Part shown: piece after piece, positions 33,492-55,603 of the stretch
Numbering within the stretch: the first letter of the stretch is position 1
Layout of the letters: each line of letters opens with the position of its first letter
From: Candidatus Moraniibacteriota bacterium
GTDB lineage: Bacteria; Patescibacteriota; Minisyncoccia; Moranbacterales; GWC2-37-73
NCBI GenBank assembly: GCA_013336225.1
Contig: JAAXUC010000005.1
Span: forward strand, 1-59,529
Reading direction: 5' to 3'
DNA length: 59,529 nt
Translations under genes and position numbers: made by a program
Notes under the pieces: model-generated
What the model was told of the DNA's origin: nothing
The model's input: only the letters and a program-made list of their open reading frames with translations
The model's database searches: none

Positions 33492-34013
33492 ATGTATAAG
33501 ATTGAAAATAAAAAAGTGTTTGCGTCATTTGTTGTGGTGATGATTGCCATTACGGGTGGTTTGATTTTTGGGGTTTATAATCTTGTGAAAAAATACAATC
33601 AAGTTCCGACCATCGAAAGAATGACAATTAAAGAAGCAGCAAAAGAAGGAGAGAAAAAAACAGTGCAGCTTTTGATTCAAATTGCTGACATTAAAAATGT
33701 TGAGGGTGTGCTTGAGCGCGGAGATGTGCTTTTGACGGCGGATGAAAACAAAGAATTTTCTGTGGCTGAGCAAGAAGGTTTTTTAATCATCAAGATGAGG
33801 CTCACGCAATCGCAGCAAGAGTTACTAGAACTTTCCTTAAAGGAGCAACAAGGAATCTTTGCTAAGCAAGACGACAGGCAACAACCAAAAGAAATTAAAC
33901 GCAGGAAATTTGCAGTCGACCTTGCAAAAATTGGAATTGGACCAGAGCAAAAAATGGGCAAAGTGATTACAGACAAAGTTTTTGAAGATGATGCATTGAT
34001 TGAAAAGAAATGA
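33492..34013 (+). CDS. Small membrane-anchored protein, coupled to the next gene
   Basis: A 173-residue protein of unknown family. An N-terminal membrane helix (about 9-30, VFASFVVVMIAITGGLIFGVYNL) is followed by a predicted extracellular alpha/beta region rich in Glu, Lys and Gln (IERMTIKEAAKEGEKKTVQL, LTQSQQELLELSLKEQQG). Its stop codon overlaps the ATG of the 1262-residue beta-helix protein (ATGA at 34010-34013), so the two are translationally coupled and probably work together. By analogy with the 25451/26288 pair, it may be a small membrane partner for a large secreted protein. I see no catalytic motif. Confidence 0.6.
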   Translation: MYKIENKKVFASFVVVMIAITGGLIFGVYNLVKKYNQVPTIERMTIKEAAKEGEKKTVQLLIQIADIKNVEGVLERGDVLLTADENKEFSVAEQEGFLIIKMRLTQSQQELLELSLKEQQGIFAKQDDRQQPKEIKRRKFAVDLAKIGIGPEQKMGKVITDKVFEDDALIEKK

Positions 34014-37000
34014 AATTTTTGAAATTTACAACCTATTTCTTTCTGGCTATGCTTTGCATGGTTGTTTTCAGTGCGCAAGCGCAAGCTGCTACTGCAATAT
34101 ATTACAGCGTCGGACAAAATACAACTTCACATGAAACTGACTTAGGCACTGTCACGGTTGATGCCACTGCTAGGACCGCAACTTTCACAGTCCCGCAAAT
34201 TGCAACCAATATGGGAGTGGGAGATTTGGTTACATATGCTGGCGGGAGCTGTTACATTTTTTCAAAAACTTCAACCTCAGTTTGGGGTTGCCAAAATGCA
34301 ACTGGTGGAGCTCCAATTGCTGTTACTGATGCGGAGGTCACTTCAATTGCACATGCATTTGCATCTCTGAACGCTGCAGAAATTGGCGCGCCAGCTTTGC
34401 TGGGAACTGCTGATTTGGTGGTTGGAAATTATCAACTCAATTTTCCTTGCTATTTTGATACTGGAGCTGATACAACTGGTGTTACTATTAGTGCTTATAC
34501 AACATCTGCAAGTAATCATGTCAGGATTTATACTCCAAATAACACTTCAACTGAAGTGAATCTTTCACAAAGGCATGTCGGTGCTTGGGACGAAACAAAA
34601 TATAGCTTGCAAACAACTGGTCGATCCATTGATGCTCTAAATGGGTATGTCAAAGTGGATGGCTTGCAAATGAGGAGAATTGCCAATGATACTTCCTGGG
34701 AAGCTGTCATGTGGATGCGTGGAACTGAGCAACAAGTTTCAAATTCAATTATTACAGCCAGCTTTACTGGTACATCTAGTAATGATTATGGAGTGCTTAA
34801 TAGTGCAGCTAATTTGTTATTTTTTAATAATATTATTTACGGAATTTCCAACGGATTAAATTTACTGACAGCTCTGAATGAGAATAGTGCAGGCAGTATA
34901 TATGTTTACAATAATACTATTACAAATTCATATCGTGGCATCGACGGAAATTCTAATACGATTGCAAAAAATAATATCGTTCAAAATTGCGGCGACGGAT
35001 TCACAGATTCTTTTGATGCCGCATCAAATTATAATATTTCCGATCTGGCAGCTGATGCGCCGGGAATTAATTCAAAAAATTCAACAACTGTTGCTTTTGC
35101 CGACGTTGCCAATAAGAATTTCCATCTTGCACCATTCGACATTGCTGCCAAAAATGCTGGCGCTGATCTTTCGGCTGATGCAAACTTTGCATTTAGCACT
35201 GACATTGATGGTCAAACTCGTCTCGCTGGAATTCCGCCAGCTGGCGGATGGGATATTGGCGCTGACGAAGCTGCTACCCAAGTTTTCTATTCTGTCGGAC
35301 AATCTGCCAGCGACCTTAAAACAGGCACAAATCCGACCATCAACATCATTTCCGGCGCTGCAGTCTTCTCAGAGGCTCAAACAGGTAACATCGGTGTGGG
35401 AGACCGGGTCACATATAACACCAACCAAATCGCATATATCAGCACTAAGACAAGCGCTGACAGGATGCACTGGAGCCTCGTTACCGCCACTGGAGCCCCT
35501 GCAGGCGACATTACAAATTCAGTGGTTGTTTCAATCAAGCATGAGTACACCTCACTTTCAGCTGCTGTGACTGGAGCGATGGATACAGATCATTTGAACA
35601 CTTCGGATTTGGCGATTGGAAATTATCAGCTTAATTTCCCTTGTTATTATGATTCTGGCGCAGACACAGCTACGGTGACAGTTTCTGGTTATGCAACTTC
35701 CGTAGGTAATTATATTAAAATTTATACACCATTCAATACTGCAACTGAAGCCAATAATTCTCAGCGACATCAGGGAAAATGGGATGAGGAGAGATATCGA
35801 CTTGAAGTAACGAATTCAAGAGCCATCACCGGAGTGGCTAATTTTTTCAGATTGGATGGCTTGCAAATCAAAGCTGCTTCGGACAGTTTGACTGCTGGTG
35901 CTACATCGCTCAATGGCGTCCAGCAGACTGATTTCACAGATATTCAAGCTTCAAATAATCTGGTTAATGTTGTGCGAAGTGCTGGGGCGGCTTATACTTA
36001 TGGCATTTCGGCTGGTAGAGCTGCAGGTGTAAGTGCCAATACGATTAAAGTTTGGAACAATATAGTTTTTGGTTCCAGTGGAAGCGCTGGCATTCATTTT
36101 GGTGGCCCAATCGCTTATGTTTATAACAATACAGTGAGTGGCGTGATTGATGGATATTATGCTGACAATGGGAGTCTGATGTATGTTAAAAATAGCATTG
36201 CACAAAATTGTAATCGTGGTTTTTATGGTGCCCATGCTTCATCAAATTATAATATTTCAGATCTTGTCGCTGATGCTCCTGGTGTAAATTCTAAAAATTC
36301 CACCACTGTGACTTTTCTCGATGCTGCCAATAAGGATTTTCATCTTTCTTTTCTTGATACATCAGCAAAAAATGCAGGATTAAATTTGCAAGCTGATCCA
36401 TTCTTGCATTTCTCTCAAGATATTGATGGGCAGGAGCGATCTGGAATTTGGGACATTGGTGCAGATGAAAACATAGAAATGGTGCAGCAAAAACAACTTT
36501 CAACTCCAGGCTTGGATACAGGACTGGTGGGACATTGGACTTTTGATGGCAGTGATGTGAATGGCAATGTCGCTAAAGACATTTCTGGCAACAAAAATGA
36601 CGGCACAATTGCTGGCGCCACAGTGACGCCTGGAAAATTGGGACAAGGGCTGAACTATGTCAGCTTGGGAAGTGTGGTGTCAGTTCCGGATAATGATTCC
36701 CTGGAAGGCATGACTCAATTAACCTTGAGCGCCTGGATTAATCCAAGAACCTCTGGAAATTTTGGACGCATCATTGAAAAAGGCAATGGCACGCCATATA
36801 ATTTTTATTTCATTGGAAGTAATTTGCAGTGCGATCTCGATTCCACTTCGGTGATAACGGCAAGTAATCCTTTTTCAGGTAAATATAACAGTTGGCATTT
36901 GGCGACTTGCGTCTATGATGGAGTAACTGTTGCAATTTATCTTGACGGAGCTTTAATTGCCTCTGCAGCCAGGACTGGATCAGTTGCAACTGGCGCAACC

Positions 37001-37798
37001 GCAGTAACTATTGGCAATAATGACAGCGGAGCTCGCACTTTTGATGGTGTAATTGATGATGCCCGCATCTATAACCGCGCGCTTTCAGGCAGTGAGATTT
37101 CGCAGTTGTATAATCTCGGGCAAACAACTTTTAACACCGCGCAGATAGACAAAAGCACCAACGGACTGATTGGCATGTGGTCATTTGATGGTGCTGATGT
37201 TTCTGGTAATACTGCCTTTGACCGAAGTGGTAATGGCAATAATGGCACAATTGCTGCTGGGCAAACCCCAACAGTCGGAAAAAATGGACAAGCAATAGAT
37301 TTTAATGGCGCAGGCAATGTTGCACTCCCTGCCAGTGCCATCTTGAGACCAACAAACGCTCTCTCGGTGGCTGGATGGATCAAGGCGGATAGCTTGACGC
37401 AATGGGATGCTCTCATTGGAAACACTGACACAGTGTGGCAGAGCGGCATGGGCGTGTTTTATGATGTCAGCAATGGTGGCGAGTTGCAATTTTTTGTTAA
37501 CAGTTATGATAATAATGTTGCTAAAATAAGTTTCAATGATACTCAGAATTGGCATTATTTAGTCGGAACTTGGGATGGAAGTGTGGTGGACATTTATGTA
37601 GATGGTGTAAAAGGAGTTTCAGATACCTATGCTGGAAGTATTGCGTATAATGACGATTTATATATTGGAGCTATTGATTCTCCAAATTCATATTCTTGGG
37701 ATGGAAAATTGGATGAGTTTCGCATGTATAATCGTGGACTCAGTGCTAAAGAAGTTTCTGATTTGTATAATGCAGGCAAGGTTGAAACGAGAAAATAG
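34010..37798 (+). CDS. Secreted beta-helix/LamG protein, 1262 residues
   Basis: A signal peptide of about 27 residues ends AQAQAA. Two modules of about 395 residues follow (28-422 and 423-815). Each opens with YYSVGQ or FYSVGQ and a small beta domain containing GVGDxVTY. It continues with GNYQLNFPCY, IKIYTP and QRHxGxWDE, then a right-handed beta-helix with NNTI/KNNIVQN rungs. It closes with FHL...AKNAGxxL...DIDGQ...WDIGADE, the ending of choice-of-anchor-Q proteins. Two LamG/ConA-like lectin domains complete it (about 838-1040 and 1051-1255), each starting GL(V/I)G and a WxFDG motif and ending in RxYNRxLS. Both domain types commonly bind or cut polysaccharide, but no catalytic residues are recognised. 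It is coupled by ATGA overlap to the membrane protein upstream. Confidence 0.78.
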   Translation: MKFLKFTTYFFLAMLCMVVFSAQAQAATAIYYSVGQNTTSHETDLGTVTVDATARTATFTVPQIATNMGVGDLVTYAGGSCYIFSKTSTSVWGCQNATGGAPIAVTDAEVTSIAHAFASLNAAEIGAPALLGTADLVVGNYQLNFPCYFDTGADTTGVTISAYTTSASNHVRIYTPNNTSTEVNLSQRHVGAWDETKYSLQTTGRSIDALNGYVKVDGLQMRRIANDTSWEAVMWMRGTEQQVSNSIITASFTGTSSNDYGVLNSAANLLFFNNIIYGISNGLNLLTALNENSAGSIYVYNNTITNSYRGIDGNSNTIAKNNIVQNCGDGFTDSFDAASNYNISDLAADAPGINSKNSTTVAFADVANKNFHLAPFDIAAKNAGADLSADANFAFSTDIDGQTRLAGIPPAGGWDIGADEAATQVFYSVGQSASDLKTGTNPTINIISGAAVFSEAQTGNIGVGDRVTYNTNQIAYISTKTSADRMHWSLVTATGAPAGDITNSVVVSIKHEYTSLSAAVTGAMDTDHLNTSDLAIGNYQLNFPCYYDSGADTATVTVSGYATSVGNYIKIYTPFNTATEANNSQRHQGKWDEERYRLEVTNSRAITGVANFFRLDGLQIKAASDSLTAGATSLNGVQQTDFTDIQASNNLVNVVRSAGAAYTYGISAGRAAGVSANTIKVWNNIVFGSSGSAGIHFGGPIAYVYNNTVSGVIDGYYADNGSLMYVKNSIAQNCNRGFYGAHASSNYNISDLVADAPGVNSKNSTTVTFLDAANKDFHLSFLDTSAKNAGLNLQADPFLHFSQDIDGQERSGIWDIGADENIEMVQQKQLSTPGLDTGLVGHWTFDGSDVNGNVAKDISGNKNDGTIAGATVTPGKLGQGLNYVSLGSVVSVPDNDSLEGMTQLTLSAWINPRTSGNFGRIIEKGNGTPYNFYFIGSNLQCDLDSTSVITASNPFSGKYNSWHLATCVYDGVTVAIYLDGALIASAARTGSVATGATAVTIGNNDSGARTFDGVIDDARIYNRALSGSEISQLYNLGQTTFNTAQIDKSTNGLIGMWSFDGADVSGNTAFDRSGNGNNGTIAAGQTPTVGKNGQAIDFNGAGNVALPASAILRPTNALSVAGWIKADSLTQWDALIGNTDTVWQSGMGVFYDVSNGGELQFFVNSYDNNVAKISFNDTQNWHYLVGTWDGSVVDIYVDGVKGVSDTYAGSIAYNDDLYIGAIDSPNSYSWDGKLDEFRMYNRGLSAKEVSDLYNAGKVETRK

Positions 37799-37834
37799 TT
37801 GAGTGTTAAATTGTTTGCTTATTGAGATTTGAGA

Positions 37835-39052
37835 ATGACAAAAACTATGAGAAAAATCACATTAGAAATATTTTTTATTGCCATGATATTTTTTATGCTA
37901 CCTGCTTTTGCAAAGGCTGCGGTTATTTTTGAAGACAATTTCAACTCTCATTCTGATTGGCAGCCCAGACCGCTTGAAAATGATGTGGCACCTGGAGGTG
38001 GTGTCGTTGCTTGCGATTTTGATGAAACGTGCACAGGAGTAAAATCAGTTCCAACTGATTGGACTAATTTCAGAACGACTGGTTGGTGGTGGGGTCCGAA
38101 TTATGAAGACACCATTAGAATAACCAATCAAGCTGATCACAATAACAATGGAAAATCCTTCATTGTATACAATGAAGCAAATAGTGGTGCTTCTGGCGAT
38201 GGCTGGGGAGCTGATGGACTACTGACCAAGTTGTTTGATCAGGATTATCCGGAAATATATGCGCGCGTTTGGCTCAAAACTGATCCCAATTGGAAGTGGG
38301 CGACAAACAATGACATGATGATCAAAATGTTTCGTGTCAAACATTTTGACAGAGTTGGCAGCATTTATACGGGTTTTCCCGCAGGAACATTGGCGCCAAT
38401 TCTTCTTTGGGACATCAAGCATTCCAATTCATGGGGAACCAGGTGGGCAAATGCTTCGCGTTGTGATCCTCAGGAAACTGATTATTATTGCACCACCAGT
38501 GTTCCTGGTGACAATCTTTTTGTTGCGGGAAACATGACCATTGAACCGAATGAGCCAGGCATGCCAGCTGATGGAGAGTGGCATCAATTAGATTTTCACT
38601 TAAAGATGAATACCTACAATTCGGAAACATCTTCTTGGAGTTCTGATGGAATATATCAATTTAGCTATGATGGTGTCAACAGGGAAAATCATAGCAATGT
38701 TTTGTGGAAAAGAACTGGATCAAATGAATCAATCGGTTGGAATGCCTTTGATCTTGGTGGCAATGCTTTCAATTCTTATAATGACAATTGGTCAAATACT
38801 ATTGATTATGCCATTGATGATGTTGTTGTGCGCAGCTCTTACAGGTGGCGCGCAATTCAGCCTGGCATCAATAATCCTCCTTATTCAGCCACAACTTATT
38901 GGGAAAATATCGGACTGGTGGCTGGGCAAATAGAGCAGTGGTATGCCATGGATGATGTGATTGTTTCCACCACTGAAATTCCTGAAAATTATGTGATTGG
39001 TGGAATTGATCTTATTGCTCCAGCTGCACCAACAAACCTCAATGTGACATGA
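37835..39052 (+). CDS. Secreted jelly-roll-like protein, C-terminus apparently cut
   Basis: A 405-residue exported protein. The signal peptide (about 1-26) ends AFAKAA. The mature part starts VIFEDNFNSHSDWQP, the typical opening of ConA-like jelly-roll domains related to polysaccharide lyases and LamG proteins, and is rich in Trp, Asn and Gly, with IYARVWLKTDPNWKW and DGEWHQLDFHLKMN. It ends PAAPTNLNVT and then a stop. That sequence normally forms the first strand of a fibronectin type III domain, so the downstream domains seem to be missing. The ATG at 37835 is chosen over the TTG six bases upstream. It lies 36 bases after the beta-helix/LamG gene, probably in the same operon. Confidence 0.65.
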   Translation: MTKTMRKITLEIFFIAMIFFMLPAFAKAAVIFEDNFNSHSDWQPRPLENDVAPGGGVVACDFDETCTGVKSVPTDWTNFRTTGWWWGPNYEDTIRITNQADHNNNGKSFIVYNEANSGASGDGWGADGLLTKLFDQDYPEIYARVWLKTDPNWKWATNNDMMIKMFRVKHFDRVGSIYTGFPAGTLAPILLWDIKHSNSWGTRWANASRCDPQETDYYCTTSVPGDNLFVAGNMTIEPNEPGMPADGEWHQLDFHLKMNTYNSETSSWSSDGIYQFSYDGVNRENHSNVLWKRTGSNESIGWNAFDLGGNAFNSYNDNWSNTIDYAIDDVVVRSSYRWRAIQPGINNPPYSATTYWENIGLVAGQIEQWYAMDDVIVSTTEIPENYVIGGIDLIAPAAPTNLNVT

Positions 39053-39109: not shown

Positions 39110-42100
39110 ATGGGATTGAATAAATTTCGTAGGTATAAAAAAATACAAATTTGCCTTGTAGCAGCTTTTTTTGCGGTGGGATTTTTTGCATTTTCGAATC
39201 AGGCTCAAGCTGCCACTCCAATTTTCTATTCCGTTGGACAAAACACAACCTCACATGAAACTGGAGCGGGCACAGTCACGGTTGATGCGATTGCCAGAAC
39301 TGCAACTTTTTCAGTGGTGCAAACTGCAGTCAACATGGGAGTGGGCGACCTTGTGACATATACTGGCGGAAGTTGCTATATTTCTGTAAAAAATTCAACC
39401 TCAGTTTGGGGTTGCCAAAGTGCAACTGGCGGAGCTCCAACTGCTGTTACTGATGCGGAGGTCACTTCAATCGCGCATGCATTTGCATCACTTTCTGCAG
39501 CAGTGACTGGCGCCAGTGGTCTTTTAGGCACTTCAGACTTGGTGGCTGGAGATTATCAATTGAATTTTCCTTGTTATTACGACACTGGGGCTGACACAAA
39601 CGCAACTGTTTCAGGATACACAACTGGAGCTTCAAATTATATCAAAATTTATACTCCAAACAACATTTTGACAGAAGTGAACAGCTCACAACGTCATTCT
39701 GGAAAATGGAATGATGGAAAATACAAGATTACAGTTGGGGATAATAATAATTTTGGCATCCAATTGGTGGTCAATTTCGTGCGTCTTGAGGGGATTCAGA
39801 TTTCCAAAACAAATTCTTCATTTAGTGGTGGAGGTGGGGTGTTGTTTGATGTTTTTGGCGACATCAGAATCAGTGACAATATCTTGAAAGGCATCTCTAC
39901 TGGAGTGTATTCTTCAACTGCCATAAGAACATCGCCAGCTGGAGCTCAAAATGTTGGCGCCATTTCAATCTGGAACAATTTGTTGCAGGATTTTAAACCC
40001 AACAGTGGCGTAGGCGGGAACACGACAGTTGTGTTTGGTTTTTTGAGTGGCAGCACAGGACGAGTCAATCTCTATAACAACACGATTGCAAACTGCAAAT
40101 TAGGTTTTGATATTACAGTTGGATTGGCTGTGGCGAAAAACAACTTGTTCAGTGGTTGCACTAATGATTTCTATACCAATCAGATTTATGCTGCAGGTAG
40201 TGATTATAATGTGACCACGAATGCCACCCTGGGATATGCGGTGACTGGCGCAGGAAACACCCATGACAAACTTTCTCAAAGTCCTGTTTTTGTGGATGCT
40301 GCCAATAAAGATTTCCATCTTTCCACTTTGGATATGGCAGCTAGAAATTCAGGAATCGATCTTTCAGCTGACGCCAGTTTGGCTTTCAACGAGGATGTTG
40401 ATTTTCAAAGTCGGCATAGCGTGTGGGATGTGGGGGCTGATGAAACAGTCACCCCAGTGTATTATTCAGTCGGACAATCCGCGGCTGACCTTAAAACAGG
40501 CTCTCCAAACATCACAACCCTTACTGCAGGTGCTGCAATTCTCTCAGAGGCTCAAACAGGTAACATCGGTGTGGGAGACCGGGTCACATATAATGGAGGC
40601 CAAATCGCATATATCAGCGCCAAGACGAATGCTGACGGCATGCACTGGAGCCTCGTGACGGCCACAGGAGACGTTCCAACTGATGTTTCTGGAGCGACGG
40701 TGGATTCAATCAAGCATGAATATACCTCACTTTCAGCTGCTGTGACGGGAGCAATGGATGTGAATCATCTGAAAACTGCCGACTTGATCGCTGGAAATTA
40801 TCAGCTCAATTTGCCTTGCTATTATGACATTGGCGCAGACCCAGATGCGGTGACAGTTTCTGGTTATACAACCAGTGCGAACAGCTATATTAAAATTTAT
40901 ACGCCTAATAATATTTCGACTGAAGCTAATAATTCTCAGCGGCATCAAGGGAAATGGGATAGTGGAAAATATCAATTGATTGTTAATAATAATCATGGCA
41001 TAAGTGAGCAGTTGGGAAATGTGTGGATTGATGGTTTGCAAATTCAACTCACCAACGTGACATCTAATCTTATGGGCATTTATGTCACAGGATCACTGGG
41101 CGCCAATGCCAATGTGAAAATTTCAGATAATATTTTGAAAGGTGCTGTTTCCACGGCTGACTGGCATATGGGAATAGATATTTGGAATTCTTCCGGATCG
41201 GGGGTGATAAAAATCTGGAACAATGTCATCTATGATTTCAAAAGAACATCAGGCAATAATGCTGTCGGCATAGGAATTGAAGATTCCTACACCTACTATA
41301 TATATAACAACACTGTTTATAATTGCGGAGTGGGTATAAATAAATGGGGCGGTACTGCAATTTTGAAAAACAATTTAGTGCAGAACACTGGCGGAAATAA
41401 TTATGGTGGAACTTTTGATGCCACTTCAAGCAATAATGTTTCTCAAGATGCAACTGCGCCTGGAACAAATTCAAAAATAAGCACTGCTGTTTCTTTTGCT
41501 GATGTGCTGAATAAAGATTTTCATCTAAATCCTTTTGACATTGCTGCCAAAAATGCTGGTGTTGATCTTTCGGTTGATGTTGGGCTTGCTTTTAATTCTG
41601 ACGTCGAGGGACAAGTGCGGCCTTCAAGTTCAAATGCAACTTGGGATATTGGCGCGGACGAAGCTGCCACGGCAATTTTCTATTCCGTCGGGCAAAACAC
41701 CACTGATCACAAAATTTGCACAAACGGTGATTGCATCACTAATCCTTTGACAGTGAGTATTGTCGGTACCACTGGCGTTGCAACTTTTTCCGTGGCGCAA
41801 ACTGCCAACAATTTGGGAGTAGGAGATAAGGTGACATATAACACAACTGAGGTTGCATATATTTCCGAAAAAATTTCAACCTCACAGTGGAAATTGATCA
41901 CAGCCTCTGGCGCAATTCCTGCTGATGTCACTGCGCAAACCGTCAACTCAATTGCGCATGCATTTGCATCCTTGAGTGCTGCCGAAGCTGGTGCGCCAGC
42001 CTTGTTGGGAACTGCTGATTTGGTGACTGGAAATTTTCAACTGAATTTCCCTTGCTATTATGACTCTGGCGCCGACACAACTGCTGTGACTGTGGATGGT

Positions 42101-45100
42101 TATGTTACAGGCGTTTCAAATTATATTAAAATTTATACGCCTAACAATGTTGGCACAGAAGTTAATCTCACCCAAAGACATTCTGGCAGATGGGATGAGG
42201 TGAGATATAATCTCATGATAAATGCGGTTGGAGATTATACTAATGCTCTTTATTTGCGTAGTGATTACACGAAAATTGATGGTTTGCAAATAAAGGTTAG
42301 CAATAATGATTTTGATGGCATAAGAGGAGTCTTGGTTGGATGGAATGATTTGGGGCGTGGATCAACTGTCCATGTTTCAAATAATATTATCACCGAAAAT
42401 CACACAACAACTAATAATGATGGGTTTGAAGCATTAAGCATTCGCAGCACAACAACCACTGGATATATTTGGAATAACTTGATTTATGATGCGAATATAG
42501 GAGGGAATACGGGATCTTCAGCCATGATGCTCTATTATAATCATCATTATGTTTATAATAACGTGGTGTATAATTATACTTCTGGCTATGGTATTCGTTC
42601 CAATGCTGGCAGTGTGCTGGCCAAAAATAACATTGTGCAGCAAGCGAGTTTTAATGGAGCTTTTGATGCTGCTTCAAGCAATAACATTTCTCAAGATGCA
42701 ACTTCGCCAAATGTGGCTTTGCAGAACAAGACAGTGTCTTTTCTTGATGCTGCCAATAAAGATTTTCATCTTGCACCCTCTGACACTACTGCTAAAAATG
42801 CTGGCGCCGATCTTTCTGCTGATCCAAGCTTTGCATTCAGCGCTGACATTGATGGACAGATTCGCTCAGCATCGCCGGGTTGGGACATTGGAGCTGACGA
42901 AGCTGCTACCGCAATTTTCTATTCCGTTGGACAAAACACGAATGATCATTCAAGTGGTGGAAATGTTTCCATTGCATCAGGAATTGCAACTTTCACCGTG
43001 GCTCAAACCGCCACCAATCTTGGAGTTGGAGATAAATTGATTGCAGGTAGCAATACATATTTTTTGGCTTCAAAAATAGACACCACTCACTGGAAGGTGG
43101 TGAATAATCTTGGGGCAGTTCCTGCTGATTCATCTTCGACGGCAGTCACTTCAATTGCACATGTGTTTTCCTCATTGAACTCAGCAGCCACCACTGCCAA
43201 TGGAGCCAGCTATCTCAACACCAGCAATTTGTATACCGGAAATTATCAATTGAATTTGCCTTGCTATTATGATTCTGGAGCAGACACGACGCAAGTGTCC
43301 TTGAATGCATGGCAAACTGCTCAAGGCAATATGATCAAGATTTATACACCCACCAACACTGCAACGGAGGTGAATGTGAGTCAGAGACACTCTGGCAAAT
43401 GGGATGATGGAAAATATAGATTGATCGTGTCAGCAACTGCTGATTATTCAAGAGCTATTCTTTTTGATAGGGGCTATGTCTGGATTGATGGTTTGCAAAT
43501 AAAATCCAGTAATAATGATTATGGATATTCTGCTGGCATCTTGGTGAATTATGCGAGTGCAAATCTTGGTCAAAAAGTGTATATCTCAAACAATATTATT
43601 ACCGAAAATCATGTAACTACTAACAATGACGGATTTGACGCAATTAATCTGTATTATGCAACTGGCTATGTTTGGAATAATTTGATCTATGATACAAATA
43701 TTGGAGGCGGCACTAACAACTCAGCGATCATGGGTTATTATAATCATCACTATGTTTATAATAATGTGATATATAATCGTGTTGGTTATGGTATTCGTTC
43801 TAATGATGGCAGCGTGCTGGCCAAAAATAACATTGTTCAACAAGCAAACTTTGATGGAACTTTTAACGCTGCTTCTAGTAATAATATTTCTCAAAATACA
43901 AGTTCACCCAATGTAGCTTTACGAAACAAAACCGTTACTTTTGCTGATGCTGCGAACAAGGATTTCCATCTTGCATCATCAGACATTGTTGCCAAAAATG
44001 CTGGCGCAGATCTTTCGGCTGATGCCAACTTTGCATTTGCAACTGACATCGACGGTCAAGCTCGTCTCGCTGGAACTCCGCCAGCTGGCGGATGGGATAT
44101 TGGTGCTGACGAAGCAGCTACGGCAGTATATTATTCAGTCGGACAATCTGTGGCAAATTTGATGTCTGGAACACCTCGAATATCAATTGCTGGTGGTGCT
44201 GCAGTTATTTCAGTAGCTCAAACAGGCAACATTGGTGTAGGAGACCGGGTCACATATAACACCAACCAAATCGCATATATCAGTGCCAAGACGAATGCTG
44301 ATGGCATGCACTGGAGCCTCGTGACGGCTACTGGAGATTTTCCAGATGATGTCAGTATGGCATTGGTGGATTCAATCAAACATGAATTTACCAATCTTTC
44401 AACTGCTGTGACTGGAGCGATGAATCCAAGTCACTTGAACACAAATGATTTGATGGCTGGAAATTTCCAACTCAATTTGCCTTGCTACTATGACTCTGGC
44501 GCTGACACTGCTGCCGTGTCAGTTTCAGGCTACAATACTGCTGTTGCAAATTACATTAAAATTTACACGCCAAATAATATTTTGACTGAAGCAAACAATT
44601 CTCAGAGGCATCAGGGGAAATGGGATGATGGGAAATATCAAATTCAAATTACAAATGGTGCTCCGCTGACTGTTGCTGAAAATTATTCAAAAATAGAAGG
44701 GCTGCAAATCAAGCACGTTCTAGCTGGTACCTCTGGTTGGGGATATGTTATGTATTTGGATACGGTCGCTGGTAAATTGTCCATCAGCAATAATATTATC
44801 ACTGCTGATATAGCAGGGGTTCCGACTGCCAACTCGCTTAATGTCGCGGGTATTCGTGGCTGCAAAGGTGATGATTCCAGTATGCCAAATTATATTTATA
44901 ATAATATCATTTATGGCGTGAAGGGGATGAGTACAGCTGCTGGAATTGAGCTTAGTTGTGGTGGAAATGGCAATTCATCATATGTGTATAACAACACATT
45001 GCATGACAATAAAGTTGGAATATTGCTGAGTTACGGCGAACATTTTTTGAAAAACAATTTAATGAATGGAAATGGGACTGACTTCATTGAAATGAATAGT

Positions 45101-47953
45101 GGCTTAGGCGCTGGACCTTTGGGTAACATTTCAGCTGATGGCACTTCACCAAATGTGGCATTACGCAACAAAACAGTTGCTTTTGCTGACGCTGCCAATA
45201 AGGATTTTCATCTATCGCCTTTTGACACCTCCGCCAAAAATGCTGGCGCTGATCTTTCAGCTGATTCAAATTTTGCATTCAATTCTGATGTTGACAGTCA
45301 AGCTCGCTCGGCAACTCCAGGTTGGGATATTGGTGCTGACGAAGCAGCCACGGCAATTTTTTATTCTGTCGGACAAAATACTAATGATCATAAAACAGGC
45401 ACCCCAACCGTGACAATTTCAAGTGGCATCGCAACTTTTTCCATGGCGCAAACTGCAACGAATATGGGAGTGGGTGACAAGGTGACATATAACACATCAT
45501 CAGTTGCATATATTGCTGAAAAAATTTCCACGACGCAGTGGAAATTGATCACCAATCTCGGTGCAGTTCCAGCTGATGTGCTTTCTGCGCAGACTGTCAA
45601 TTCAATTGCGCATGAATTCACTTCTTTGACGCAAGCCATTGGCAATGGTTCAAATTATGTTGCTAACATTTCTCATTTAAACACTGCTGATTTTGTCGTT
45701 GGTAATTATCAACTGAATTTGCCTTGCTATTATGATACTGGTGCTAACACGAGTGGACTGACGATGTCCACCAATTTGCAGACTTCGCCCAGCAACTATA
45801 TTAAAATATATACTCCAGCAAGCACTGCAACAGAAGTTAATTTGAGTCAAAGACATTCAGGTAAATGGGATGATACTAAATTCAGGATCGATGTAAATGG
45901 TTCTTTTCAACTCAATATAGGCTATACAGTTGCGGATGGCTTGCAATATGATCTTGGTTTTGAAGGCGTCTATGTTCAAACTTATCCTGATGAGGTTAAA
46001 ATTTCAAATTCCATAATCAAGTCTTCTTATGGTGCAATTTATGGCGTCAGAATTGATGGCGCAAGTTCAAAACCTAGAAAAGCTTTTGTTTTTAACAATA
46101 TCATCTATGGCATGGAAACTTGCATTGCCAGGTATTACGATGGAGCGGGAAAGACTCTTTATGCATATAATAATACGGTTTATGACTGTAACACGGCAGG
46201 CATCAATGATATGGCGGGTTCCAGTGTTATAGCCAAGAATAACATTGTGCAAGCCTCAACCAATGGCTATGATGGAACTTTTTTGGCTGGCAGTGATTAT
46301 AATGTTTCCGATTTGGCTGCTGATGCGCCTGGCGCCAATTCCAAAAACTTAACCACTGTTTCTTTTCTTGACGCTGTTAATAAAGACTTTCATCTTTTTG
46401 CAACTGATACGTCAGCACATGACGCCGGCACTGATTTGAGTAAGGATGCAAATTTTGCCTTTGACGTTGATATTGATGGTCAAGGAAGAATTAATGCGTG
46501 GGACATTGGCGCTGATGAATTTGCTGAAACACAAACTGAAAAATCTGCGCCCGCTGCATCAAGCACTGAAAGTGGACTTGTGGGACATTGGACTTTTGAC
46601 GGGAATGATGTGAATGGAGATGTTGCCAATGATGTTTCTGGAAACAATAATAATGGCACAATTATTGGCTCCTCGCCCGCACTTGGGAAGCTTGGACAGG
46701 CGATGAGTTTCAATGGAACAGGTGATGGAATCACAACTGTTGACCAGGATTATTTTAGCCCAATTGTGAATGACATATCCATGTCTTTTTGGGCTAAAGT
46801 TCCGAGCTCAACCGCACCAAGTGGTGATGGTGGTTGTGGAGGTGTTGGCAGATATTTCATGGCAAAAGATGATTCTGGAATTAGTCCTGATTGGGGTTTT
46901 GAAAATGATGGTAATAATAAGATTTGTTTCGTTGCTTGGCAGGGCAGTGCATCAAATTATGGTGAAATTTCTGTTGGCAAAACAGTTAATGATGATCAGT
47001 GGCATCACTATATTGGCACTATGAGTTATGGAAATAAGATGGAATTGTTTATTGATGGAATTTCGGTCGGGCAAACGACAGCTTTCACTGGGTCAATGAT
47101 AAACAGCACGAAGGAAGTGCAATTTGGGCGAAGAGGTGATGGCAATTTTATGGCAGGCTTGCTTGATGACGTTCGCATTTACAGCCGTGCGCTTTCCACT
47201 CAGGAAATTGGCAGGCTGTATAATCAGGGTCAAATTAAAGTTCAGGCTCCGCAAAAAGCTCCAAATGCAAATGGCCTGATTGGCAGTTGGTCATTTGATG
47301 GAAATGATGTCAACGCAACAACTGTTTTTGATCGCTCTGGCAATGGAAACAATGGAACAATTTTCGGTGCCACGCCAACTCTTGGAAAAATTGGACAAGC
47401 CATGAGTTTCAATGGCACAAGCGATTACGTGAGTATGGGAGATATGAATCAAGCTGATGGGTTAGCTGCCATAACAACTTCGGTTTGGATGAAATTCAAA
47501 GTGGCTGGTGGTGGCTTGGCAGAGACACATATCTTGGACAAATCACGTTGTGATGGAACCGCAAATGGTGGAACTTTCGAATTGGGCGTAAGTCTGTTTG
47601 GGGCCAGAAAAGCTGAATTTGCGGTTCTTCCAAGTAATGGTGTTCCTGCTAATTTTGTTGTCTCAGGAGCTGGGACAACGAGCGTGGACGATGCAAATTG
47701 GCATCATCTCGTTGGAAGGTATGATGGTCAAAATGTTTCAATATGGGTGGATGGTGTTCAGGAAAACATTGCCAATGTTGGAGCTTTTAATCTTAGCTCG
47801 AATAATAGAAGCGTGGAGCTTGGCGGAAATTGTAATGGATATCCATTTCGATTTAATGGTGATCTTGATGATGTTCAAATTTATAATCGCGCACTTTCAG
47901 CACAGGAAATTGGACAATTATATAAAGCTGGACAAGTTGGAATCAGGAAATAA
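39110..47953 (+). CDS. Giant secreted protein: six beta-helix modules and two LamG domains
   Basis: A 2947-residue paralogue of the protein encoded at 34010. The signal peptide is about 1-36 (ending NQAQAA). Six modules of roughly 400 residues start near 37, 449, 856, 1269, 1673 and 2083, each with the YSVGQ opening, the small GVGD domain, a right-handed beta-helix and the DIGADE ending of choice-of-anchor-Q proteins. The modules vary most in the beta-helix rungs, which would form the exposed binding face. Two LamG/ConA-like domains follow (about 2487-2700 and 2721-2940). No sortase motif, membrane anchor or catalytic centre is visible. DNA identity between some modules is very high in short blocks, suggesting recent duplication or gene conversion. 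It is likely a long surface adhesin or glycan binder. Confidence 0.8.
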   Translation: MGLNKFRRYKKIQICLVAAFFAVGFFAFSNQAQAATPIFYSVGQNTTSHETGAGTVTVDAIARTATFSVVQTAVNMGVGDLVTYTGGSCYISVKNSTSVWGCQSATGGAPTAVTDAEVTSIAHAFASLSAAVTGASGLLGTSDLVAGDYQLNFPCYYDTGADTNATVSGYTTGASNYIKIYTPNNILTEVNSSQRHSGKWNDGKYKITVGDNNNFGIQLVVNFVRLEGIQISKTNSSFSGGGGVLFDVFGDIRISDNILKGISTGVYSSTAIRTSPAGAQNVGAISIWNNLLQDFKPNSGVGGNTTVVFGFLSGSTGRVNLYNNTIANCKLGFDITVGLAVAKNNLFSGCTNDFYTNQIYAAGSDYNVTTNATLGYAVTGAGNTHDKLSQSPVFVDAANKDFHLSTLDMAARNSGIDLSADASLAFNEDVDFQSRHSVWDVGADETVTPVYYSVGQSAADLKTGSPNITTLTAGAAILSEAQTGNIGVGDRVTYNGGQIAYISAKTNADGMHWSLVTATGDVPTDVSGATVDSIKHEYTSLSAAVTGAMDVNHLKTADLIAGNYQLNLPCYYDIGADPDAVTVSGYTTSANSYIKIYTPNNISTEANNSQRHQGKWDSGKYQLIVNNNHGISEQLGNVWIDGLQIQLTNVTSNLMGIYVTGSLGANANVKISDNILKGAVSTADWHMGIDIWNSSGSGVIKIWNNVIYDFKRTSGNNAVGIGIEDSYTYYIYNNTVYNCGVGINKWGGTAILKNNLVQNTGGNNYGGTFDATSSNNVSQDATAPGTNSKISTAVSFADVLNKDFHLNPFDIAAKNAGVDLSVDVGLAFNSDVEGQVRPSSSNATWDIGADEAATAIFYSVGQNTTDHKICTNGDCITNPLTVSIVGTTGVATFSVAQTANNLGVGDKVTYNTTEVAYISEKISTSQWKLITASGAIPADVTAQTVNSIAHAFASLSAAEAGAPALLGTADLVTGNFQLNFPCYYDSGADTTAVTVDGYVTGVSNYIKIYTPNNVGTEVNLTQRHSGRWDEVRYNLMINAVGDYTNALYLRSDYTKIDGLQIKVSNNDFDGIRGVLVGWNDLGRGSTVHVSNNIITENHTTTNNDGFEALSIRSTTTTGYIWNNLIYDANIGGNTGSSAMMLYYNHHYVYNNVVYNYTSGYGIRSNAGSVLAKNNIVQQASFNGAFDAASSNNISQDATSPNVALQNKTVSFLDAANKDFHLAPSDTTAKNAGADLSADPSFAFSADIDGQIRSASPGWDIGADEAATAIFYSVGQNTNDHSSGGNVSIASGIATFTVAQTATNLGVGDKLIAGSNTYFLASKIDTTHWKVVNNLGAVPADSSSTAVTSIAHVFSSLNSAATTANGASYLNTSNLYTGNYQLNLPCYYDSGADTTQVSLNAWQTAQGNMIKIYTPTNTATEVNVSQRHSGKWDDGKYRLIVSATADYSRAILFDRGYVWIDGLQIKSSNNDYGYSAGILVNYASANLGQKVYISNNIITENHVTTNNDGFDAINLYYATGYVWNNLIYDTNIGGGTNNSAIMGYYNHHYVYNNVIYNRVGYGIRSNDGSVLAKNNIVQQANFDGTFNAASSNNISQNTSSPNVALRNKTVTFADAANKDFHLASSDIVAKNAGADLSADANFAFATDIDGQARLAGTPPAGGWDIGADEAATAVYYSVGQSVANLMSGTPRISIAGGAAVISVAQTGNIGVGDRVTYNTNQIAYISAKTNADGMHWSLVTATGDFPDDVSMALVDSIKHEFTNLSTAVTGAMNPSHLNTNDLMAGNFQLNLPCYYDSGADTAAVSVSGYNTAVANYIKIYTPNNILTEANNSQRHQGKWDDGKYQIQITNGAPLTVAENYSKIEGLQIKHVLAGTSGWGYVMYLDTVAGKLSISNNIITADIAGVPTANSLNVAGIRGCKGDDSSMPNYIYNNIIYGVKGMSTAAGIELSCGGNGNSSYVYNNTLHDNKVGILLSYGEHFLKNNLMNGNGTDFIEMNSGLGAGPLGNISADGTSPNVALRNKTVAFADAANKDFHLSPFDTSAKNAGADLSADSNFAFNSDVDSQARSATPGWDIGADEAATAIFYSVGQNTNDHKTGTPTVTISSGIATFSMAQTATNMGVGDKVTYNTSSVAYIAEKISTTQWKLITNLGAVPADVLSAQTVNSIAHEFTSLTQAIGNGSNYVANISHLNTADFVVGNYQLNLPCYYDTGANTSGLTMSTNLQTSPSNYIKIYTPASTATEVNLSQRHSGKWDDTKFRIDVNGSFQLNIGYTVADGLQYDLGFEGVYVQTYPDEVKISNSIIKSSYGAIYGVRIDGASSKPRKAFVFNNIIYGMETCIARYYDGAGKTLYAYNNTVYDCNTAGINDMAGSSVIAKNNIVQASTNGYDGTFLAGSDYNVSDLAADAPGANSKNLTTVSFLDAVNKDFHLFATDTSAHDAGTDLSKDANFAFDVDIDGQGRINAWDIGADEFAETQTEKSAPAASSTESGLVGHWTFDGNDVNGDVANDVSGNNNNGTIIGSSPALGKLGQAMSFNGTGDGITTVDQDYFSPIVNDISMSFWAKVPSSTAPSGDGGCGGVGRYFMAKDDSGISPDWGFENDGNNKICFVAWQGSASNYGEISVGKTVNDDQWHHYIGTMSYGNKMELFIDGISVGQTTAFTGSMINSTKEVQFGRRGDGNFMAGLLDDVRIYSRALSTQEIGRLYNQGQIKVQAPQKAPNANGLIGSWSFDGNDVNATTVFDRSGNGNNGTIFGATPTLGKIGQAMSFNGTSDYVSMGDMNQADGLAAITTSVWMKFKVAGGGLAETHILDKSRCDGTANGGTFELGVSLFGARKAEFAVLPSNGVPANFVVSGAGTTSVDDANWHHLVGRYDGQNVSIWVDGVQENIANVGAFNLSSNNRSVELGGNCNGYPFRFNGDLDDVQIYNRALSAQEIGQLYKAGQVGIRK

Positions 47954-51497: not shown

Positions 51498-54400
51498 ATG
51501 AAAATCAAAGTAAAAATGAAAGCATTTTTGAGTGTTGCAACATTTGCTGTGGTATTTTTGGTGGCGCAGCAAGCACGCGCGGCAACTTCCAGTACATACA
51601 CTTCAACTCCTGCGCTGATGCCAGAATACGGCTTGGGTTTTGGAACTGTTTCCTATACTCCTGTTTTAAATGGCGGAACGATTGTGATGAAAGTTCGTTC
51701 GTGCTTGACCAGCAGTTCTGCCGCTTGCGACACTGAGCGAAGCGGCGCGCATGCTTGGACAGTTTGCAGTGCACTGGCTGACAATACTGATACTAATGCT
51801 GGTGGATGTATGACAGCTGGCGATCCTTATGTGCAATATCAAGTTACTTTGTCCACCAGCGATCTTAATGTGCCAAGTTTTGGACCAGTACAGATTAATA
51901 ATAAAACTGGTTATTCAACTGCTTGGCAAAATTTGATTTCTTCACCTTTTGATAGTGGCGACAGTTATACTTCCATCAGTAATTTGACTTGGACGGGTGG
52001 CACTGGCACAACTTCGCCAGTCAAATTTCAAATGCGCACCGCACCTGACAATGGCAGTGGCGCCCCTGATTGGGCGAATGGCAGCGGTTGGTGCGGGGCG
52101 GGAGATGCAATCAATTGCTCGCAGACAATGGCCAACGGCAAAGGCGGGGTAAAAACGCAAGCTACTGCTGGAAATACGCCCTATGATATTGCAGTAGATA
52201 GTGATCATGGTTATGTTTGGGTGGCAAATGCTTCTTCAGCTAATATTAGTCAGATATCCATGGCTACAGGTTTAAAAATACGTGATATTGCTACTGGATC
52301 CTGGCCATACTCAATTGCGTTGGATAGTATTCATAATTATGTTTGGGTGGCCAATAAGGATTCTGATACGGTTAGTCAAATATCAATAACTTCAGGCACT
52401 AAAATACGTGATATTGCCGTTGGAAGTAAGCCAGTGAGTATTGCTGTGGATAGTGCTGGCGGCTACGTATGGGTGGCTAATTCGATGTCTAACAGTATTA
52501 GTCGAATTTCAATTTCCACGGGTGTGAGGGTGCCGCTGAATATTTCAGTTGGCGATGGTCCGAAATCAGTTGCTATTGATCGTACCAATGGTTATGCTTG
52601 GGTGACAAATGTTAATTCTAATACTGTTAGTCAGATATCTATAGCTACAGGCTTAAAAATAAAAGATATCCCTACTGACAGTATGCCTATTGGCGTCGCT
52701 GTAGATAGTGATCATGGTTATGTATGGGTCTCTAATTTCGGTACAGACAATGTTAGTCAAATATCGATAGCTACAGGCACTAAAATACGTGATATTGCTG
52801 TGGGAAATCTTCCATATGCAATTGTGGTTGATAGCGTTAATGGCTATGTTTGGGTGGCAAATACTTCTGGGACGCCAAGAACAATTAGTCAAATATCGAT
52901 AGCTACGGGCTTAAAAATACGTGATATTGCTGTTGGCAGTATGCCGCAGATCGCAAATGTTATTTCTGTAGATAGCATTAATGGTCATGTTTGGGTGGCG
53001 AATTCAGATGGTGCTAGTCAGATAGATATAGCTACAGGTATTAAGATGCGTGACATTTCAATAGGTGGTACGGGTTATGCAATTTCTGTTGATAATATTG
53101 GTGGTAATGTGTGGGTTGGGGCTGGTATTGGTAACACAATTAACAGGATACCAATATTTGATTATTACGCTATCGGCACAGGCAACACGATAAATTCCTC
53201 ACAGGCTAACACGGCACACACGACCAATAAGAGTCGCTGGGTGCAATATGCAACTTTTGTGCAATCGACGGATGGGATTTCTGCGCCCACTCCCGTGACA
53301 AATGTCACCACTTCATTTTCTTTTAATTCACCGCCAGCCATCACTGGCGCAAATTTTGCTCAAATGCAATCTGGAGCTGATGCCAGCAAAGTGAAGGCAA
53401 TATATTCCATTGCAGATGCAGATGTTGGCTCCGTGCCTGCCGATCCTGTGATAAATAATCAAGCCTATCAAGCATTTTTTTATCGACCAAATGGCATTGC
53501 TTTATCTGATCCAATAGATGCTGTCAACACAACAACCATAAAATTGGCCAATTTTGCTAGTCAGTCAATGCCAACTAGTGGATTTCTCTTGTTGGACAAT
53601 GAACTTATAAAATATACTGGCTATTCGGGTACAACAACCTTAACACTGACTGGCGTGACTCGAGGTGCTGCTTTTGATAATCCTTCATCAGCTTATCCCA
53701 CAGTGGCGGTTGCACATACAAACGCTTTGGCATACTTCAAAGCTAATAGTGTGGTTTATGATACAGGTAATCCTATTATCACCACTGCTACAACTCCAAC
53801 TGCACATTCAATCACTTGGGATGCAAAAAATGAACCTAATATGAGTGCAAGTTTAAACAATTCTGTCTGGCAGACTTGGACCTTTAAAGTTGTGGCTAAT
53901 GACAAGGGTTACGGATCAAATATGGGTTCGACGGCAGCTTTATCCTTGAACACCGTCACTGCCACCAGTCCAAGCTATTTAGATTTGAAAGCTCCAGTCA
54001 TCACTAACATCTTGCCTGCCAATAATGCCTATGTGAATGCGGCAGGGCTCAAGGTAGGATTCACCAATGATGAAAATTTGTTCACAGATAGTGCAAAATT
54101 TGTTTTCACTCGCACGGCTGGATCGGCAGATGCCAATGTTCACACTTGCACGCTCAAGCCTGCTGCATTGCTTTTGAGTGGTACGCATAATAATATAACG
54201 CTAGACACCACTAATTGTAACGAGACAACCAATCTTGCTAATCTTGTGGATGGGGCGACATACAACATGGTCTTTAGTGGTAGTGATATGTATGGAAATC
54301 TTTTGACTGCGCCAGCGCAAGTGGTGACCTATGACACCACGCCACCAATTATTGTTAGTGTGGGTGCAGTAACTCCCAACACGTCGTATGATATTGGACC

Positions 54401-55547: not shown

Positions 55548-55573
55548 GGCTATTTATGTATATTAATTTAATT

Positions 55574-55582
55574 TGATATAAT
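55574..55582 (+). promoter_or_regulatory. Extended -10 promoter of the second FISUMP gene
   Basis: TGATATAAT, 21 bases before the ATG at 55604, followed by the Shine-Dalgarno AAGGA (55597-55601). Confidence 0.55.
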
Positions 55583-55603
55583 TTGTTTATATTGATAAGG
55601 AAT

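What the first reader, a model, noticed from the sequence alone, without database searches (positions are those of the whole stretch)
39110..47953. 2947-residue protein with six tandem beta-helix modules, and a two-module paralogue next door
The module (YSVGQ opening, GVGD small domain, beta-helix, DIGADE ending) occurs twice at 34010 and six times here, always followed by two LamG domains. The framework is conserved and the rungs vary, as expected of a receptor-binding array that changes module number. The scale is notable for an organism expected to have a small genome.
Basis: partly seen in the sequence, partly recalled or inferred. Interest (0 to 1): 0.58.

Follow-up and report, generated by a model that had tools for sequence, protein, structure and literature searches.

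The report
Surface protein with swappable beta-helix cores
A very small bacterium carries two neighbouring genes for huge secreted proteins built from repeated modules whose ends stay the same while the middle is different in nearly every copy, and phages use the same kind of module, which suggests a kit of exchangeable recognition surfaces.

Summary
Protein A (34010-37798) has two and protein B (39110-47953) six copies of a ~400-residue module, each protein ending in two LamG domains. AlphaFold models a module as a right-handed beta-helix (pLDDT 91.7). The genome is a 1.11 Mb Patescibacterium of the Moranbacteria. Module number varies within the genus (none to about nine per genome), without a fixed order.

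The stronger result is inside the module: conserved N- and C-caps enclose a ~150-180-residue beta-helix core that is nearly independent of them. Among genus modules core identity stays at 30-33% whether caps are under 50% or over 80% alike; caps and cores give conflicting trees. Three Desulfarculales genes, the control, keep caps and cores in step. In IMG/VR phages the same module lies in virion gene clusters. There, contigs 89% identical over 5 kb differ in one block of about 0.4 kb: the core.

Best reading: secreted, probably surface-acting recognition proteins whose cores are exchanged between constant caps by recombination. Mosaicism is shown; binding, surface location and targets are inferred. 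The kind is known (phage tail fibres, Bdellovibrio MAT fibres); this format looks like a new variant.

The parts
34010..37798 (+). Protein A, 1262 aa: N-terminal hydrophobic segment, modules A1 and A2, two LamG domains
34094..35269 (+). Module A1 (variable core 34607-35077)
35279..36469 (+). Module A2 (variable core 35801-36295)
36671..37102 (+). LamG domain 1 of A
   Evidence: PF13385
37304..37759 (+). LamG domain 2 of A
   Evidence: PF13385
39110..47953 (+). Protein B, 2947 aa: N-terminal hydrophobic segment, modules B1-B6, two LamG domains
39218..40444 (+). Module B1 (variable core 39728-40270)
40454..41662 (+). Module B2 (variable core 40976-41476)
41672..42901 (+). Module B3 (variable core 42212-42724); core sister to B4, N-cap not
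42911..44113 (+). Module B4 (variable core 43421-43924); structure modelled
44123..45343 (+). Module B5 (variable core 44642-45166)
45353..46519 (+). Module B6 (variable core 45887-46345); core sister to the last module of L009 (73% identity)
46712..47209 (+). LamG domain 1 of B
   Evidence: PF13385
47411..47911 (+). LamG domain 2 of B
   Evidence: PF13385
33492..34013 (+). 173-aa protein with one N-terminal hydrophobic segment, overlapping the start of A by 4 nt; relatives near the module genes in L006, L008, L009 and L064
26288..33418 (+). 2376-aa protein with N-terminal hydrophobic segment and GGTG repeats (tail-fibre-like by recall); relatives near modules in L063, L064 and L017
48088..50688 (+). 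866-aa protein, about 14 hydrophobic segments plus TPR; relatives downstream of module genes in L006, L007, L009 and L068

Best explanation
A and B are secreted recognition proteins. Each module is a right-handed beta-helix held between a conserved N-cap (small beta-domain plus first coil) and a conserved C-cap (NKDFHL...DIGADE). The caps build a standard joint; the helix core between them carries the variable surface. Recombination between cap sequences (exact DNA matches of up to 52 nt between window modules) swaps cores and adds or removes modules, so one gene presents several unrelated surfaces in a row, followed by LamG domains on a flexible linker. The most likely job is binding glycans or other envelope structures of a host or neighbour cell. 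SHOWN: the repeat, the modelled fold, the cap/core mosaic, variable module number, and the same module in phage virion gene clusters. INFERRED: export (from N-terminal hydrophobic segments), surface location, binding, targets, and cap recombination as the motor.
For: Fold: pLDDT 91.7; Z up to 18.7; the list holds pectate, alginate and rhamnogalacturonan lyases and phage tailspikes. Edges: over 26 genus pairs with like N-caps amino-acid identity falls from 0.67 to 0.12 at residue 171 and returns to 0.68 at 341; 10 Desulfarculales pairs stay at 0.41-0.91 throughout; modelled core strands begin at 170-175. Decoupling: core identity medians 30-33% in all cap-identity bins, 496 pairs of 32 genus modules; Mantel cap-core r=-0.07, p=0.72, n=25, against r=0.38, p=0.002, n=16 in Desulfarculales. 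Conflict: B3+B4 core clade 100/99.9 but N-cap data reject it (AU p 0.002); L006_11231+L009_10001 core clade 100/100, rejected by N-caps (p 0.0003); A1+B4 C-cap clade 89/89, rejected by N-cap (p 8e-5) and core (p 4e-4). No D, E, K, R, H or C position is conserved at 80% in the core over 60 modules, against 20 outside it, which fits binding better than one shared active site. Phage: L080 and L086 are 88.7% and 89.3% identical on either side of a ~396-nt block, whose only blastn match is 35 nt; 20 of 22 phage pairs with N-caps at least 78% alike at DNA level have cores at most 55% alike. Cap matches up to 52 nt.
Against: No binding, localisation or expression data. Among genus pairs the silent-site test does not separate core from C-cap: identical codon at identical residue is 0.590 in the N-cap, 0.521 in the core, 0.495 in the C-cap (random 0.422). 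The clades tested by AU were chosen after seeing the identities, and several AU tests were not significant (see full report). In the 14 phages cap and core are still correlated (r=0.44; 0.30 without L119). No close strains of the window genome were available, so exchange is shown between paralogues and species, not within a population. No anchoring motif was noticed by eye at the C-termini printed, so surface retention is unexplained. Long-range packing of module and LamG is modelled poorly (pLDDT 72.5, pTM 0.48).
Confidence: 0.55

Rival explanations
1. The cores are not exchanged. Caps are held by purifying selection and cores merely evolve very fast, by diversifying or relaxed selection, in old paralogues.
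For: Caps are under strong purifying selection (N-cap pN 0.07-0.18 at pS 0.42-0.63 in the 28 closest genus pairs listed); the pooled codon test in the genus is not decisive; the best N-cap or C-cap neighbour lies in the same genome for 12 of 25 modules each, against 4.9 expected.
Against: Like cores on unlike caps exist (B3/B4: core 63%, N-cap 51%), which fast cores cannot give; trees conflict. Within one protein, L008_6404/L008_10001 have pS 0.46 and 0.39 in the caps and 0.73 in the core, codon identity 141/209 against 18/44, Fisher p 0.0017, pair picked after the fact. Phage pairs pooled: 0.692 and 0.605 in caps, 0.495 in the core (pairs not independent). At the same cap divergence Desulfarculales cores stay alike.
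Confidence: 0.2
2. The modules are a battery of polysaccharide-degrading enzymes; different cores fit different polysaccharides.
For: The nearest solved folds are mostly polysaccharide lyases and related enzymes; LamG domains often bind carbohydrate (recall).
Against: No conserved charged, His or Cys position in the core, where the active sites of such lyases lie (recall); no enzyme family in Pfam or NCBIfam above threshold for the modules.
Confidence: 0.2
3. The genes are captured phage tail or head genes, or a prophage remnant, without a role of their own.
For: The module is common in phage virion gene clusters; caps of phage L074 fall among Patescibacteria caps (support 87, quick tree).
Against: N-terminal hydrophobic segments and LamG domains are present here, while most phage copies printed begin directly with the module; gyrB lies upstream; neighbours are related surface-type genes conserved in the genus; open frames of 1262 and 2947 aa are kept.
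Confidence: 0.08
4. The arrays are spacers or S-layer-like material in which core sequence does not matter.
For: Core positions that are conserved are mostly Asn, Gly and hydrophobic ladder residues.
Against: Neutral drift does not explain whole-core mosaicism, nor the same pattern in single-module phage proteins.
Confidence: 0.12

Closest known systems
Bdellovibrio bacteriovorus MAT fibre proteins (PMC10769870, passages read)
   Same: A secreted family in a cell-attacking bacterium, related to phage fibres, with beta-helix parts, constant regions and diversified parts (Bd1334 and Bd2133 share 75% in the fibre and then diverge).
   Different: MAT proteins are trimeric fibres with diversified tips; here intact ~400-aa modules are repeated in one chain and the variable part is in the middle of each module. 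Trimerisation was not tested here.
Phage tailspikes and other phage beta-helix proteins (e.g. 7eea, 6w4q)
   Same: Right-handed beta-helix; relatives of the module itself occur in phage virion gene clusters.
   Different: Both caps are constant here and only the core varies. The phage genes often sit near the major head gene, so head decoration is as possible as a tail role.
Pectate, alginate and rhamnogalacturonan lyase beta-helices (1ru4, 7dmk, 5olr)
   Same: Fold, Z 17.6-18.4.
   Different: No conserved charged core residues; no sequence match in the PDB.
choice-of-anchor Q domain, NCBIfam NF041518
   Same: The DIGADE ending aligns weakly to it (13.6 bits, E 0.06, in B).
   Different: Far below the cut-off of 25 bits; here it closes every module.
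Large adhesion-domain proteins of Patescibacteria (PMC13059738, passages read)
   Same: Large exported or membrane proteins with concanavalin A-like and other adhesion domains in an episymbiont.
   Different: No beta-helix module array was described in the passages seen.

Membership tests
Right-handed parallel beta-helix proteins | Beta-helix fold | tested here: met
   Model pLDDT 91.7; Z up to 18.7 over model residues 1-400. Foldseek alone gave no PDB match at E 0.001 or better.
Polysaccharide lyases (PL6, PL9) | Conserved catalytic or metal-binding residues on the coils (recalled) | tested here: not met
   0 D/E/K/R/H/C positions conserved at 80% in the core of 60 modules. Single modules were not tested.
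Polysaccharide lyases (PL6, PL9) | Enzyme activity | not testable with these tools
   needs assay
LamG (Laminin_G_3, PF13385) | Above curated cut-off | tested here: met
   158.1 and 141.3 bits against 27.6
choice-of-anchor Q domain (NF041518) | 25-bit cut-off | tested here: not met
   13.6 bits
Bdellovibrio-type MAT fibres | Trimeric assembly | not tested
   no oligomer was modelled
Bdellovibrio-type MAT fibres | Surface display and prey binding | not testable with these tools
   needs experiment
Diversity-generating retroelement target | Reverse transcriptase in the genome | tested here: not met
   No RVT_1 match at E 0.01 in the 1.11 Mb, 100% complete assembly; controls ring in 3 of 14
Phage virion protein family (PHROGs) | Match to a PHROG | tested here: not met
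   No PHROG match at E 0.001 for three window modules or for phage module proteins L074 and L082

The most novel reading that the evidence does not exclude
Phages and host-associated ultrasmall bacteria share one platform of exchangeable beta-helix cartridges: constant caps act as both folding joints and recombination joints, and unrelated cores are clicked in. Phages carry mostly one cartridge per gene; the Moranbacteria string up to six or more in one secreted chain, a heritable repertoire of recognition surfaces for choosing host cells. The caps would let one find such repertoires from sequence and read out what varies.
Probability: 0.35. Interest if true: 0.8.

Novelty: new variant of a known kind. 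Interest (0 to 1): 0.6.

Why it matters
How most Patescibacteria choose and hold their hosts is unknown. A family in which the variable recognition part is marked off by constant caps gives a way to list candidate host-recognition surfaces from genomes and to test them one core at a time. The same module in phages and in small, probably host-dependent bacteria would also link two recognition systems that are usually studied apart.

Tried and rejected
Diversity-generating retroelement: rejected, no reverse transcriptase in the genome, and whole cores differ rather than scattered sites. Prophage: not favoured (gyrB and conserved surface-type neighbours). Simple gene conversion of whole modules: within-genome and between-genome identity medians are nearly the same for N-cap, core and C-cap. 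Transfer of cores between phage and bacterium: no bacterium-virus pair reached 50% core identity (identity times coverage; best 47%). Phage and plasmid record collections gave no tblastn match to B4. A common partner gene: 38 of 60 phage upstream genes found form one family, but the 173-aa gene upstream of A is not in it. The upstream 129-aa genes of L074, L077 and L094, alike in length, are not alike in sequence. Gene 37829-39052 has no Pfam or NCBIfam match and no convincing PDB match.

A Planctomycetes hit (L010) holds a module identical to one of Moranbacteria L008 and was treated as a misbinned contig and dropped. Loci dropped in those calls as copies or near-copies of others: L059-L062, L066, L010, L105, L078, L088, L142, L144, L128, L112, L125, L143, L146 (some judged so only by equal module coordinates and scores). 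Searches used only full-length modules (60, of which 25 from the genus and one same-family genome), so partial modules were left out. still holds three duplicate pairs (L063/L009), all in the top cap bin. L081 was left out of the phage Mantel test because its start is incomplete. One search, with gaps scored as mismatches, listed 12 phage pairs, of which 11 show the drop and L100/L119 does not; my notebook entry gives this wrongly as 12 of 13. One search is the count used. The class survey scored at most four candidates per genome, so its module numbers per genome are lower bounds.

Literature: searches (no papers; listings) showed no paper on this module family in the held library; subscription journals are mostly missing. 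Only passages of PMC10769870 and PMC13059738 were read; other papers were seen as search listings only.

Full report
Check of the observation. Two neighbouring genes encode proteins of 1262 and 2947 residues. A holds two and B six modules of 389-410 residues, separated by three residues, each with the same landmarks. Modules share 42-62% identity. Each protein ends in two LamG domains well above the Pfam cut-off. Each begins with a hydrophobic segment, read here as an export signal. No other gene of the own genome (1,114,845 bases, 31 contigs, 100% complete) holds a full module; one weak fragment lies on contig 11.

Where it lives. Nearest named relatives are Moranbacteria and other Patescibacteria. 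Modules occur in 21 of 128 genomes of the order and in 40 of 383 genomes sampled from the class, the latter including weak core-only matches. Within the genus: the window genome has 2+6; G001 5; G003 4; G004 one full and two partial; G005 five in one gene and four more in two neighbouring frames, some with broken or missing N-caps; G002 none. So number and order are not fixed. In three Desulfarculales genes of two MAGs (L011 and L015 from one assembly, L014 from another) the 5 or 6 modules lie at almost the same positions.

Fold. Module B4, with 52 relatives as alignment, is modelled at pLDDT 91.7, pTM 0.92. Structural neighbours are right-handed beta-helix proteins, mostly polysaccharide-acting enzymes and phage tailspikes, Z up to 18.7. 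Foldseek on its own gave no PDB match at E 0.001 or better, and no PDB chain matches by sequence. A second model, module A2 plus both LamG domains, is weaker (pLDDT 72.5, pTM 0.48) and shows a low-confidence linker at residues 383-410, between module and LamG.

Mosaic structure. Window modules already show it at DNA level: A1/B1 and A2/B2/B5 are mostly 70-88% identical in the N-terminal part and about 30-55% in the core, B3/B4 the reverse for much of their length. Across 26 genus pairs with N-caps at least 74% identical in DNA, amino-acid identity drops from 0.67 to 0.12 at residue 171 and returns to 0.68 at 341; ten Desulfarculales pairs chosen the same way show no such drop. Core identity is flat at 30-33% over all cap-identity bins in the genus (496 pairs); the between-group background is 29% and shuffled sequence 22%; Desulfarculales cores rise to 60-67% in the two top bins (9 pairs). 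Mantel correlation of N-cap with core is -0.07 (p 0.72, 25 modules) in the genus and 0.38 (p 0.002, 16 modules) in Desulfarculales. Trees of N-cap, core and C-cap conflict, with AU p from 0.002 to 8e-5 for the named pairs; those pairs were chosen after seeing identities. Some AU tests were not significant: C-cap data do not reject B3+B4 (p 0.105), L006_11231+L009_10001 (p 0.17) or B6+L009_13598 (p 0.085), and core data do not reject L008_6404+L008_10001 (p 0.39). The last module is partly orthologous: B6 and the last module of L009 share 73% of the core (core clade 100/100). The pooled silent-site test in the genus does not set the core apart from the C-cap.

Phages. A scan of IMG/VR found 161 relatives, of which the best 80 were kept; 79 ORFs had a module by HMM, 61 with one and 18 with two to seven. 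Most starts printed show no signal peptide, many beginning MATEV or similar; some do show one. Virion hallmarks lie close by: L076 major head protein (E 1e-60), head-tail adaptor directly downstream and minor tail protein; L094 head protease and major head; L082 major head; L074 tail-fibre-like genes and a portal match (E 3e-29). No hallmark was found among the five L077 neighbours or the three L093 neighbours scanned; L092 gave only weak tail matches and a protease. 38 of 60 upstream genes form one family, so the pair is a regular phage unit. Contigs L080 and L086, from one metagenome, are 88.7% and 89.3% identical on either side of a block of about 396 nt that matches only over 35 nt; it falls on residues 93-224 of the L080 protein, the core. 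Among 15 chosen loci, 20 of 22 pairs with N-caps at least 78% identical in DNA have cores at most 55% identical; the exceptions are L100/L119 (97%) and L081/L092 (70%). Silent sites suggest that cores are older than caps: 0.692 and 0.605 against 0.495 (pairs not independent). Cap and core are not fully independent in phages (r 0.30-0.44).

Mechanism. The part that varies is the helix core, whose length ranges from 147 to 200 residues in bacteria and 147 to 194 in phages. Conserved core positions are ladder-type residues; no charged, His or Cys position is conserved at 80% over 60 modules. This fits a binding surface that differs from module to module better than one shared active site. Caps supply stretches of identity up to 52 nt for homologous recombination. 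The neighbourhood is conserved in part of the genus: a 173-aa protein with one hydrophobic segment, a 2376-aa repeat protein, and a TPR protein with many hydrophobic segments. G002, which lacks modules, also lacks the 173-aa gene; so does G004, which has modules. By analogy with Bdellovibrio MAT fibres (PMC10769870, passages), I infer recognition of other cells. Surface location, binding and targets are inferred.

Verdict. The new part is the constant-cap, exchangeable-core format, the independence of core from cap in Moranbacteria, and its presence in phage virion gene clusters. It is a new variant of a known kind (beta-helix recognition proteins).

Noticed in passing
window 26288-33418: 2376-aa protein with many GGTG...GDILY...LSRL repeats that look (by recall) like phage tail-fibre repeats; only a PHROG of unknown function matches.
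   Followed up: partly
window 51498-57031: Two genes with a Fib_succ_major domain, one with a Vgb-type beta-propeller; such lectin-like domains can be retroelement targets (recall), but the genome has no reverse transcriptase.
   Followed up: partly
L009 1-4677 and L063: In G005 neighbouring module genes break or restart inside the N-cap (model positions about 45-68): decay, deletion or an assembly fault.
   Followed up: partly
L009 6482-15460, residues about 755-830: The N-cap of the first module carries an insert that resembles repeats of phage tail proteins (recall).
   Followed up: no
L010: A contig labelled Planctomycetes holds a module identical to one of Moranbacteria L008, probably a binning error.
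   Followed up: partly
L076-L153: Phage module genes mostly follow a conserved small gene (38 of 60 in one family) and in some contigs lie near the major head gene, so the product may be a head decoration rather than a tail part.
   Followed up: partly
L011, L014, L015: Desulfarculales genes of 4498-4943 residues carry 5 or 6 modules.
   Followed up: partly
window 37829-39052: 407-aa protein with an N-terminal hydrophobic segment between A and B, without a recognised family.
   Followed up: partly
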